Under the pieces are notes generated by a model. It did not search any database, had not been told where the DNA came from, and saw only the letters and a list, made by a program, of their open reading frames with translations. From assembly GCA_017465825.1 (NCBI GenBank), contig JAFTVI010000034.1, forward strand, positions 40,476 to 104,475: 64,000 bases of DNA, in the 5' to 3' direction. Made by a program: the position numbers and the translations under genes. Of this stretch, positions 3,356-27,135 are shown piece after piece (position 1 is the stretch's first letter; every line of letters starts with the position of its first letter). This DNA comes from Clostridia bacterium (GTDB lineage: Bacteria > Bacillota > Clostridia > Oscillospirales > Acutalibacteraceae).

Positions 3356-3968
3356 TTTCACTGTCCTCCGGCAATTCATAATCTGAAAGGGCAGATTTTA
3401 TGTCACTGTAAGAAAACCCCAAGCGCATAAGTCCTGCTATCATTCGGCGTTTGCCTTTTTCGTCGTTAAGGCAATTGCTGTATTTTTTTTGTATAACATC
3501 AATAATACTGACAGAATAATCCACTTCAAGCGAATTTATGACATCATCAATAATTTCGCGGTCTATTCCTTTTAAATTAAGCTCCTGACGTATGCGTGTG
3601 GCACCGTACTTTTTTCGCTCAGCTAACTCTTTTGCATAACAGGATGCAAAATCCGCATCGTCAAGAAATCCCAGTTCTCTGCATTTTTCGATTGCATAAC
3701 GTGCTGAGATGTGACTGTGTTTTTTGAGGAGCTTATTATATAATTCTTTTTCGGAATGTGAGCGGAGCGTAAGAAAACGCAGAGCCTGGGAGTACGCTAA
3801 TCTTGCATTAACAAGGTCTTTGAGCGCGTCAAGCTCGTCGTTATCTATTTCGCATCCGTTGGTATAATCGAGTGAATACCATATATCGGCGTCGATTGAC
3901 ATTATGTATTCACCGTCGGCATACAATGCCAACCGTCCGCCCTTGGAAATTTCTGTTTTGATTATCAT
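3345..3968 (-). CDS. recX: Regulatory protein RecX
   Basis: A 207-residue protein directly downstream of recA, overlapping it by 4 bases (ATGA). RecX proteins bind RecA filaments and limit or modulate their activity. The sequence shows the three-helix repeats typical of RecX ([46 protein letters not shown]), and the basic spacing [15 protein letters not shown] is characteristic. Coupling to recA and shared LexA control would keep the two in proportion. Confidence 0.9.
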
Positions 3969-5047
3969 TCGTCGTCATCAACTGTAACATCAAGCCTTGC
4001 TTTTGCGTTAGAAGCTGATTTGGGTCTTGATGTTTCTTTTTTTGCAGAAGCGGAAGATGCGTTATCAGCCTGTGCGGCACGGATTTTTGCCTCGATTTCA
4101 GCGGCAAATTCGGGATTTTCATCAAAGTAAATCTTAACATTCTCTCTACCCTGACCAAGACGCATATCACCGTATGAGAACCAGGCGCCGCTCTTGTTTA
4201 TGATACCCAAATCTACGCCGATGTCTACCATTTCGCCTGTCTTTGATATACCGCAACCGTACATAATATCAAATTCTGCAGTTTTGAAAGGAGGTGCAAC
4301 CTTATTCTTAACAACCTTACATTTTGTTCTTGAGCCTAAGATTTCTGTACCTGAACCCTTGATCTGCTCGCTCTTTCTGACTTCAATACGGATTGTTGAA
4401 TAGAATTTGAGCGCTCTGCCGCCTGTTGTTACCTCGGGATTGCCGTAAATAACGCCGACCTTTTCACGAAGCTGATTGATAAAGATAACAAGTGTATTGG
4501 ATTTTGCTATTGCACCTGCGAGCTTACGCAGAGCCTGAGACATAAGTCTTGCGTGCAGACCGACGTGTGAATCACCCATATCACCTTCGATTTCAGCCTT
4601 CGGAACAAGAGCAGCAACAGAGTCAACAATAATAACATCAATAGCACCCGAGCGAGCAAGAGCCTCTGTAATTTCAAGAGCCTGTTCACCGTTGTCGGGC
4701 TGAGAAACAAGAAGCGAATCAACATCTACACCTAATTTCTCTGCATAAACAGGGTCAAGTGCGTGCTCAGCATCAACGAATGCCGCCTCTCCGCCCATTT
4801 TCTGAGCTTCTGCAACGCAGTGAAGTGCAAGAGTAGTTTTACCTGACGATTCAGGACCGTAAATCTCAACAATACGTCCTCTGGGTAAGCCGCCGATGCC
4901 TGTCGCGGCATCAAGAGTGATTGAACCTGTTGAAATTGCTTCAACGTTCATTGTATTTGCCTCGCCCAGACGCATAACTGCGCCTTTACCGTATTTTTTT
5001 TCAATCTGTGAAAGTGCGGTTTCAAGAGCTTTCTGCTTGTCTGCCAT
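3965..5047 (-). CDS. recA: Recombinase RecA
   Basis: RecA of 360 residues, normal length. It forms filaments on single-stranded DNA, drives strand exchange and triggers LexA self-cleavage. The Walker A motif GPESSGKT is at residues 64-71, and the L1/L2 DNA-binding region and MAW signature [16 protein letters not shown] are intact. The C-terminus is extended and charged (ends in a run of Asp plus Glu), as usual. First gene of recA-recX-rimO-pgsA. A consensus promoter and a LexA-type operator precede it (5080-5127), so it is expected to be SOS-inducible. Confidence 0.98.
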
Positions 5048-5079: not shown

Positions 5080-5092
5080 GTACAAATGTTCG
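5080..5092 (-). promoter_or_regulatory. LexA (SOS) box of recA
   Basis: On the minus strand CGAACATTTGTAC fits the Gram-positive LexA core GAAC-N4-GTTC with one mismatch. It begins 6 bases downstream of the -10 element and covers the predicted transcription start, a position where a repressor would block initiation. The comM box at 27088 has the same geometry. Confidence 0.75.
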
Positions 5093-5098
5093 ATAAAT

Positions 5099-5127
5099 AT
5101 TATATATTATTTTACTTTCTTTTGCAA
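5099..5127 (-). promoter_or_regulatory. recA sigma-A promoter
   Basis: Minus strand TTGCAA (5127-5122), 17-base spacer, TATAAT (5104-5099). The predicted start falls near 5092, inside the LexA-type box. Confidence 0.75.
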
Positions 5128-25386: not shown

Positions 25387-25415
25387 TTGACAAACATATT
25401 TTTATAGCTTATAAT
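25387..25415 (+). promoter_or_regulatory. Consensus sigma-A promoter of a candidate small RNA
   Basis: Perfect TTGACA, 17-base spacer, perfect TATAAT. It points into a 110-base interval that contains no coding sequence and ends in a strong terminator. Confidence 0.8.
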
Positions 25416-25421
25416 GTGCCT

Positions 25422-25532
25422 ATGGATTAGCTAAAATACTATATGTAGTTACTCAGATTTCATCTTCTTATCATATAAAACAATCCTTGAGAAACAACAG
25501 GCGGAAGGTAACTTCCGCCTGTTGTTTTTTTT
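25422..25532 (+). ncRNA. Candidate intergenic small RNA, about 105-110 nt
   Basis: Between the perfect promoter at 25387 and the hairpin at 25493-25526 there is no open frame longer than two codons with a ribosome binding site. The 5' GGATT (25424-25428) can pair with AATCC (around 25482-25486), enclosing a region with a further weak ATATG/CATAT stem; the 3' end is the terminator. It is convergent with comM, whose stop codon lies 4 bases past the terminator region. It does not look like 6S, tmRNA, SRP or RNase P RNA. Targets unknown. Confidence 0.6.
25493..25532. terminator. Strong terminator of the small RNA, facing comM
   Basis: AACAACAGGCGGAA / TTCCGCCTGTTGTT, 14-bp perfect stem, then TTTTTT. 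Likely also used on the minus strand to end comM. Confidence 0.9.
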
Positions 25533-25535
25533 GCA

Positions 25536-27071
25536 TCAATTCTCATTATTCCAGAATTTTCTGTCAAGACTTCTGTACTGTATTGCCTCAGCTATGTGTT
25601 TTACATCTATATTTTCACTGCCGTCAAGGTCTGCGATTGTTCTTGCAACACGAAGCACCTTATCATACGCTCTTGCAGAAAGTCCAAGCTTTTCAAAGGA
25701 ATTTTTGAGCATCTGTGATGCACCGTCGGTAAGAATACAGAATTTACGTGTCATTTCAGCAGTCATATGAGCGTTTGATTTTATATCCGTGCCTTCAAAT
25801 CTTTTAAGCTGAATACGTCTTGCAGTATTCACACGTTCTTTAATCTGCTTTGATGTTTCACTCTTTTCAGTATCGGAAAGCTCGGAAAAGCTCACCTGCG
25901 GAACCTCTATATGTATATCAAGCCTGTCAAGCAACGGACCGGAGACTTTAGCAAGGTACCTTGCCGCCGCACCGCCGGGACAGGTGCACTTTTTTGTGGG
26001 ATGCCCGTAATATCCGCAGGGGCAGGGATTCATAGCACAGACGAGCATAACGGAACAAGGATATGTCAGCGTACCGGCAACACGGGAAATGGAAACCTTG
26101 CCGTCCTCTATAGGCTGACGGAGCGCCTCCATAGCATTACGGGAAAATTCGGGCAATTCATCGAGAAACAGAACACCGTTATGAGCGAGAGAAATCTCGC
26201 CGGGCTTGGGAACTGAGCCGCCGCCCGAAAGTCCCGGTGCGGAAACCGTGTGATGTGGCGATCTGAAAGGTCTTTGACGGATTATTGAAACATCCTTGGG
26301 GAGCTGACCTGCTACGGAGAATATTTTTGTAGTTTCAAGTGATTCGTCAAATGTCATATCAGGCAGAATTGACGGAATACGCTTTGCGAGCATACTTTTG
26401 CCCGAACCGGGAGGCCCGATCATCATAACGTTGTGGGAACCTGCGGCGGCAATCTCCAATGCTCTTTTTGCCTGATACTGACCTTTTACATCAGCAAAAT
26501 CTGCCGTAAATGGCATATCGGTTTCATCCTCAAAGCCGTCAAACTCGGCTTTTTCTATAAGCGTTTCACCTTTCAGATGTGCAATGAGTTCTTTAACATT
26601 TTTTACGGGATAGACGTTGATTCCGTCAACAACGGATGCCTCTGCCTGATTGTCGACGGGAACAAAAATATTTTCATATCCTTTGTTTCTCGCTTCAATC
26701 GTCATCGGTAACACACCGTTGACGTGATGAAGCTCACCGCCCAAAGAAAGCTCACCGATAAATGCACATTTGCTCACGTCGCAATTAAGCTGTTTTGATG
26801 CCGACATCAGCGCAATGAGAATAGGCAAATCGTAAATAGGGCCTTCCTTGCGTATATCCGCCGGTGCAAGATTGACTGTTATATGTATTGTCGGAAAATC
26901 GTAACCGCTGTTTTTCATAGCGGCGCGCACACGCTCTTTTGACTCGGAAACAGCCGCATCGGGCAGCCCTACGATATCGAACTTTGCCTTACCCATAGCG
27001 ATATCGGCTTCAATATTTACTATGTAAGAGTGCATACCGAATACACCAACACTTGACACCGTTGCAAACAT
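25536..27071 (-). CDS. comM: ComM/YifB family AAA+ ATPase (Mg-chelatase-like)
   Basis: A 511-residue hexameric AAA+ protein. N-terminal ChlI-like domain with GLPDAAVSESKERVRAA, Walker A GPPGSGKS in the middle, LDELPEF Walker B, and a C-terminal Mg-chelatase-like domain with the CPCGYYGH...C cysteine motif. In naturally transformable bacteria ComM is a branch-migration helicase that widens the RecA-made joint during DNA integration. The start is ATG 27071 after GAGGTG. Its promoter overlaps a LexA-type box (27088), tying it to the SOS response together with recA. Confidence 0.92.
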   Translation of the reverse strand: MFATVSSVGVFGMHSYIVNIEADIAMGKAKFDIVGLPDAAVSESKERVRAAMKNSGYDFPTIHITVNLAPADIRKEGPIYDLPILIALMSASKQLNCDVSKCAFIGELSLGGELHHVNGVLPMTIEARNKGYENIFVPVDNQAEASVVDGINVYPVKNVKELIAHLKGETLIEKAEFDGFEDETDMPFTADFADVKGQYQAKRALEIAAAGSHNVMMIGPPGSGKSMLAKRIPSILPDMTFDESLETTKIFSVAGQLPKDVSIIRQRPFRSPHHTVSAPGLSGGGSVPKPGEISLAHNGVLFLDELPEFSRNAMEALRQPIEDGKVSISRVAGTLTYPCSVMLVCAMNPCPCGYYGHPTKKCTCPGGAAARYLAKVSGPLLDRLDIHIEVPQVSFSELSDTEKSETSKQIKERVNTARRIQLKRFEGTDIKSNAHMTAEMTRKFCILTDGASQMLKNSFEKLGLSARAYDKVLRVARTIADLDGSENIDVKHIAEAIQYRSLDRKFWNNEN

Positions 27072-27087
27072 CTTTTTCACCTCATAA

Positions 27088-27101
27088 TGAACATTTGTTC
27101 A
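27088..27101. promoter_or_regulatory. LexA (SOS) box of comM
   Basis: TGAACATTTGTTCA is a perfect GAAC-N4-GTTC palindrome. It begins 6 bases beyond the comM -10 element, the same relative place as at recA, and shares the ten bases GAACATTTGT with that site. Confidence 0.75.
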
Positions 27102-27106
27102 AAGAA

Positions 27107-27135
27107 ATATTACAATATATTTTGCTTTTTGTCAA
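27107..27135 (-). promoter_or_regulatory. comM promoter
   Basis: Minus strand TTGACA (27135-27130), 17-base spacer, TAATAT (27112-27107). Confidence 0.7.

What the first reader, a model, noticed from the sequence alone, without database searches (positions are those of the whole stretch)
27088..27135. comM is under a LexA-type box built like that of recA
TGAACATTTGTTCA (27088-27101) is a perfect GAAC-N4-GTTC palindrome just downstream of the comM -10. The recA site (5080-5092, one mismatch) has the same distance from its -10 and shares GAACATTTGT. In known transformable bacteria comM belongs to the competence regulon; here branch migration and RecA loading may be induced together by DNA damage. 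This is an unusual regulatory link.
Basis: partly seen in the sequence, partly recalled or inferred. Interest (0 to 1): 0.7.

Follow-up and report, generated by a model that had tools for sequence, protein, structure and literature searches.

The report
DNA-damage switch on comM gene
In a bacterium related to gut Clostridia, the gene for a DNA-recombination motor (comM) carries the same repressor-binding site as the DNA-damage (SOS) genes lexA, recA and dinB, so it is most likely switched on by DNA damage; this link was already known in another bacterial class.

Summary
GAACAAATGTTC (27089-27100) lies 6 nt after a TTGACA-17-TAATAT promoter and 17 nt before the comM ATG. Loose forms of the pattern are not enriched in window or genome. 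The exact core is: 7 copies against about 0.7 expected. The genome has one lexA, and the motif stands before lexA, recA and dinB. The strongest evidence is conservation. The comM box is intact in 7 of 10 same-genus upstream regions (own included) and in two further relatives. Its pairwise identity is 0.90-0.95 against 0.33-0.52 in the flanks. It stays with comM when the neighbouring gene changes. It was not found near comM outside this clade; one upstream site there serves a divergent dinB-type gene. Best reading: LexA represses comM and DNA damage derepresses it. Precedent exists: comM is reported as an SOS gene in Alphaproteobacteria. New here is the Clostridia case, with the Gram-positive LexA box and limited to one clade, in a phylum where ComM was called absent.

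The parts
27089..27100 (-). LexA-type operator (SOS box) GAACAAATGTTC of comM
   Evidence: sequence; the same word at 6 other places of the genome, promoters by eye; conserved in 9 species
27130..27135 (-). -35 hexamer TTGACA of the comM promoter
   Evidence: TTGAC kept in the genus alignment
27107..27112 (-). -10 hexamer TAATAT of the comM promoter, spacer 17
25536..27071 (-). comM / yifB (Mg chelatase-like AAA+ ATPase), probable ATG at 27071 (the listed ORF begins with GTG at 27080)
   Evidence: TIGR00368 623 bits against a cut-off of 362; PF01078, PF13541, PF13335; best solved-structure hit ComM 8rxd, 391 bits
5080..5091 (-). recA operator GAACATTTGTAC (one half-site weakened)
   Evidence: the same word before recA in 11 of 49 genomes examined, GAACATTTGTGC in 4 more
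5099..5104 (-). -10 TATAAT of recA (-35 TTGCAA at 5122-5127)
   Evidence: read
3965..5047 (-). recA
   Evidence: TIGR02012 557 bits

Best explanation
The site is a LexA operator laid over the start region of the comM promoter. In undamaged cells a LexA dimer bound at about +1 blocks RNA polymerase. When DNA is damaged, RecA filaments trigger LexA self-cleavage, and comM is derepressed together with lexA, recA and dinB. ComM, a hexameric branch-migration helicase, would then help RecA-made joint molecules to extend during recombinational repair, or during uptake of DNA by damaged cells. Shown here: the site, the promoter sequence, the LexA gene with cleavage and catalytic residues in the aligned positions, the shared motif, and conservation with comM. 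Inferred: binding, repression, induction and the role of ComM.
For: (1) One lexA is found, over the curated cut-off (209 bits). Its alignment to solved LexA proteins keeps the Ala-Gly site and the Ser and Lys positions. (2) The lexA promoter has AAACAAATGTTT and GAACAAAAGTTT, the dinB promoter has two boxes, and the recA box is at 5080-5091. (3) The lexA promoter holds an exact RAACAWWTGTTY-type site in 29 of 40 genomes examined, 21 of 32 outside the genus; the same scan before comM outside the genus gives 1 of 46, so this is the LexA motif of the group. (4) The comM box is intact in 7 of 10 same-genus upstream regions, own included, and in L049 and L050. Pairwise identity is 0.90-0.95 in the box against 0.33-0.52 in flanking blocks. 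(5) In 80 named comM loci (707 kb) RAACAWWTGTTY occurs 10 times, 8 of them at comM promoters; the other two are L044:8532 and L064:1450. (6) The box stays in G006/L048, where the upstream neighbour is a sigma-factor gene instead of the divergent sugar mutase.
Against: No binding or expression data exist. Of the three same-genus genomes without the box, G003 keeps the lexA and recA boxes but has a degraded comM site (AAACAAATACTT), so the link can be lost. G002 and G010 have no box at recA either. Outside the genus 0 of 46 relatives have a site within 60 nt of the comM start. Loose forms of the motif are not enriched over backwards controls. The transcription start was not mapped.
Confidence: 0.9

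Rival explanations
1. The palindrome is a chance occurrence of a short, AT-rich word.
For: Bare GAACN4GTTC and loose forms of the core are not enriched in window or genome.
Against: The exact core is about 10-fold over a Markov expectation. It has nearly the same placement, 12-21 nt before the comM start, in 9 species whose flanks have diverged.
Confidence: 0.02
2. The box regulates the divergent sugar-phosphate mutase gene (27231+), not comM.
For: The two genes share the intergenic region, 130 nt from box to mutase ATG; promoter-like hexamers also face the mutase gene.
Against: The box sits 12-21 nt before comM in all 9 species that have it. It is kept where the mutase is not the neighbour (L048/G006). 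It is missing in several relatives that keep the comM-mutase pair, such as L052, L107, L112 and L117.
Confidence: 0.02
3. Another repressor with the same half-sites (a LexA-like phage or element repressor) binds the site.
For: Several relatives hold second, partial LexA-like proteins, and some boxes of this genome lie at mobile-element or toxin-like genes.
Against: The genome shows a single hit to the lexA model, and its own promoter carries the motif twice. The motif at lexA is widely conserved in the order (29 of 40).
Confidence: 0.05
4. Same LexA control, but its purpose is transformation: DNA damage raises ComM so that imported DNA is integrated.
For: ComEC and DprA family genes are present. 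ComM is called the canonical transformation-specific helicase of Gram-negative bacteria (abstract of PMC11612176).
Against: No exact or one-mismatch core site is listed within 10 kb of the comEC or dprA hits. The pilus/ComG apparatus was not tested. The comM family is over its cut-off in 57 of 60 genomes of the order, own included, which fits housekeeping recombination as well.
Confidence: 0.2

Closest known systems
LexA/DinR operator of Gram-positive bacteria (GAACN4GTTC; Bacillus subtilis, Clostridioides difficile)
   Same: Same half-sites and spacing; lexA and recA carry it too. Motif and C. difficile gene table as given in passages of PMC4234289.
   Different: Here the centre is AAAT/ATTT. 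comM and chelatase are not named in the C. difficile regulon paper's main text by a term search.
SOS-regulated comM of Alphaproteobacteria (Caulobacter crescentus; by one paper also Sinorhizobium meliloti)
   Same: comM under LexA control, reported in passages of PMC3323433 and PMC6473078; the latter cites Erill et al. 2004, which I did not read (one search found no copy under the DOI that I tried).
   Different: In Dinoroseobacter shibae the same paper assigns comM to CtrA and only dprA and recA to LexA. From recall only: alphaproteobacterial LexA uses a direct repeat (GTTC-N7-GTTC), so the operator here is of another type and the link probably arose separately.
ComM branch-migration helicase (PDB 8rxd)
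   Same: Sequence relative over almost the full length, 391 bits, residues 13-503.
   Different: ComM is described as transformation-specific in Gram-negative bacteria and absent in Firmicutes (PMC11612176); here it is in a Clostridia genome under an SOS-type promoter.

Membership tests
LexA operator (SOS box), Gram-positive type | palindrome GAACN4GTTC in a promoter | tested here: met
   27089-27100 exact, 6 nt after the -10
LexA operator (SOS box), Gram-positive type | lexA present in the genome and carrying the same operator (autoregulation) | tested here: met
LexA operator (SOS box), Gram-positive type | same motif at recA and other SOS genes | tested here: met
   recA; dinB with two boxes; uvr and ruv genes were not looked at
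LexA operator (SOS box), Gram-positive type | evolutionary conservation of the site beyond its flanks | tested here: met
   box 0.90-0.95 against flanks 0.33-0.52 in 10 (9 without G003) upstream regions
LexA operator (SOS box), Gram-positive type | LexA binding and DNA-damage induction | not testable with these tools
   needs purified protein or a cultured relative
LexA repressor | winged-helix N-domain plus S24 domain with Ala-Gly cleavage site and Ser/Lys dyad | tested here: met
   TIGR00498 209 bits; residues aligned to solved LexA
ComM / YifB family | full-length match to the YifB Mg chelatase-like model | tested here: met
   TIGR00368 623 bits against a cut-off of 362; the narrower model NF007365 is 463 bits, below its cut-off of 530
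ComM / YifB family | branch-migration activity | not testable with these tools
   biochemical assay needed
competence regulon member | shared control with competence genes | tested here: inconclusive
   no exact or one-mismatch core site near the comEC and dprA hits (C14:56962, C16:71462); other competence control and other com genes were not looked for

The most novel reading that the evidence does not exclude
In this Clostridia clade ComM works as a general SOS-induced recombinational-repair branch-migration motor, recruited to the LexA regulon independently of the alphaproteobacterial case. That would make 'transformation-specific' too narrow a description of ComM.
Probability: 0.4. Interest if true: 0.55.

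Novelty: new member of a known kind. Interest (0 to 1): 0.4.

Why it matters
ComM is near-universal in this order of Clostridia (57 of 60 genomes, own included), yet its role outside natural transformation is unclear. Placement under the DNA-damage repressor in two distant bacterial classes points to a role in repair, or in recombination under damage. The clade gives a natural contrast (box present, degraded or absent) in which to test it.

Tried and rejected
Idea that ComM replaces RadA/Sms: the RadA model finds nothing over the cut-off in this genome. However, RadA is over the cut-off in 9 of 10 same-genus relatives, all six other box-bearing ones included, so the gap is probably due to an 87%-complete assembly. 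Rejected.

Out-of-genus support from G035: its perfect box upstream of comM (L131 3119-3130) lies before a divergent Y-family polymerase gene (L131 3197-4411, IMS domain). It was therefore not counted as a comM box.

Frequency of GAACN4GTTC or of loose core forms as evidence: dropped, since they do not exceed expectation or backwards controls.

Rows dropped before counts. comM: of 60 genomes (own included) three had no match over the cut-off (G023, G029, G040) and G008's contig is cut at the gene, leaving 56. Of 80 named loci, L046 and L097 had no usable upstream DNA, leaving 78; six of the eight named loci with a box are the same genomes as G handles. lexA: of 44 genomes over the cut-off, 40 were counted. 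G054 and G057 were not fetched, two G010 loci gave no N-terminal match, and the G001 hit (fetched as L269, matching only positions 78-196 of the model) was left out. recA: of 58 genomes with a match, 49 were examined; nine were not fetched. Some lexA and recA starts were placed by alignment and may be off.

Literature: comM+LexA (the 40 listed of 70 were seen as titles and abstract starts), magnesium chelatase+LexA+SOS, YifB+LexA, and other mixes showed no paper on comM under LexA in Clostridia or other Firmicutes. This covers open-licence PMC text and only the listed papers. Four papers on Caulobacter searched for the word comM had none.

Full report
The observation. On the minus strand, comM (yifB; TIGR00368 623 bits) is preceded by TTGACA-17-TAATAT, 6 nt, GAACAAATGTTC, then GAGGTG and an ATG at 27071. 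The recA gene has TTGCAA-17-TATAAT, 7 nt, GAACATTTGTAC.

Chance. The loose pattern GAACN4GTTC is not enriched in the window (19 with up to one mismatch, 21.4 expected) or the genome (23, against 84 for the backwards control; 28-30 expected from a Markov model of the window). Loose forms of the core also stay below their backwards controls. The exact core GAACAAATGTTC, or its reverse complement, occurs 7 times against 0.72-0.75 expected. By my reading all 7 lie outside the likely genes, inside or just after TTGACA/TATAAT-like promoters. Frequency is thus weak evidence; conservation, below, is the strong evidence.

Who binds it. The genome has one lexA over the curated cut-off. Its protein matches the LexA model at 209 bits and aligns to solved LexA proteins with the Ala-Gly cleavage site and the Ser and Lys positions kept. 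Its promoter has AAACAAATGTTT and GAACAAAAGTTT. A dinB-type polymerase has two boxes. Across the genomes examined the lexA upstream region holds an exact RAACAWWTGTTY-type site in 29 of 40 cases. The recA upstream region holds one within one mismatch in 24 of 49 cases, most often GAACATTTGTAC (11). The same scan before comM outside the genus finds 1 of 46. The mismatch in the recA box is thus itself conserved, perhaps a weaker operator (inference).

Conservation at comM. Upstream DNA of comM was compared in 56 of 60 genomes (own included) and 78 of 80 named loci. In the same genus 7 of 10 (own included) have the intact box 12-21 nt before the start. G003 has a degraded one, and G002 and G010 lack it at recA too. 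Two further named relatives (L049, L050) have it; the other six named hits are the same genomes as G handles. Pairwise identity is 0.90 (0.95 without G003) in the box and 0.33-0.52 in the flanking blocks, promoter hexamers included. In 707 kb of named comM loci the motif occurs 10 times, 8 at comM promoters. Outside the genus 0 of 46 have it within 60 nt of comM; the one exact upstream site (G035) lies before a divergent dinB-type gene. So the link was gained in, or kept only by, one clade; which of the two was not tested.

Which gene it serves. The divergent sugar mutase stands next to comM in many relatives that lack the box, and the box persists in G006/L048, where comM follows a sigma-factor gene. 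The site belongs to comM. A strong hairpin follows the comM stop codon; its long T run is on the opposite strand, so that comM is transcribed alone is only a guess.

What it does. LexA repression with release on damage is the established mechanism for such sites (general knowledge); binding and induction were not tested. ComM is a branch-migration helicase, and one paper calls it transformation-specific in Gram-negative bacteria and absent from Firmicutes (PMC11612176, abstract and passages). Here the family model is over its cut-off in 57 of 60 genomes of the order, own included. The genomes are called Clostridia by the record titles of matching contigs. comEC and dprA family genes are present but have no exact or one-mismatch core site listed nearby. 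A repair role therefore seems at least as likely as a transformation role.

Known or new. LexA control of comM has been reported in Alphaproteobacteria (passages of PMC3323433 and PMC6473078), though the latter assigns comM to CtrA in Dinoroseobacter shibae. I found no paper on it in Clostridia or other Firmicutes in the searches named under Tried and rejected. It is an ordinary SOS box with a second, apparently independent, recruitment of comM: real, well supported, moderately interesting.

Noticed in passing
L021:1604-1880 and L023:2742-3015 (own genome, contigs C35 and C1): Two copies (mean column identity 92%) of a ~270-nt element: LexA-like box inside a TTGACA/TATAAT spacer, then a noncoding, RNA-like leader with a long terminator-like stem; in L021 upstream of a MobV-relaxase-like gene (66 bits, below the cut-off of 100). 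No Rfam match at gathering threshold and no match in the plasmid or phage collections.
   Followed up: partly
L012:3073-4033 and L002:532-1210 (own genome): Two genes with Phage_Mu_F and ribonuclease (barnase-like) domains, each with a perfect LexA-like box at the promoter; L012 is followed by a barstar-family gene.
   Followed up: partly
L006:1886-3220, L278, L274: Run of about four small same-strand ORFs starting with a sigma70 region-4-like protein, with SOS boxes before it, in three species of the genus; function unknown.
   Followed up: partly
L014:2669-3019 and L286:1046-1541: DUF6291 gene with SOS boxes at the promoter (by eye) in two species.
   Followed up: no
window 25387-25533 (+): Perfect TTGACA-17-TATAAT promoter followed by ~113 nt ending in a strong hairpin with a T run (z -5.8), convergent with the comM 3' end; a possible small RNA. 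Rfam gives only hits below gathering score. Of eight relatives examined one (L049) has an antisense promoter-like match downstream of comM, apparently of a tRNA gene by eye.
   Followed up: partly
L276:25-1512 (G007): A GAACATTTGTTC site with a promoter-like sequence (by eye) lies before a glucuronate isomerase (uxaC) gene, an odd candidate SOS target.
   Followed up: no
G010:C103 (L268): In one same-genus genome comM follows recA and recX-, rimO- and pgsA-like ORFs (named by eye) on one strand, and neither recA nor comM has the box.
   Followed up: no
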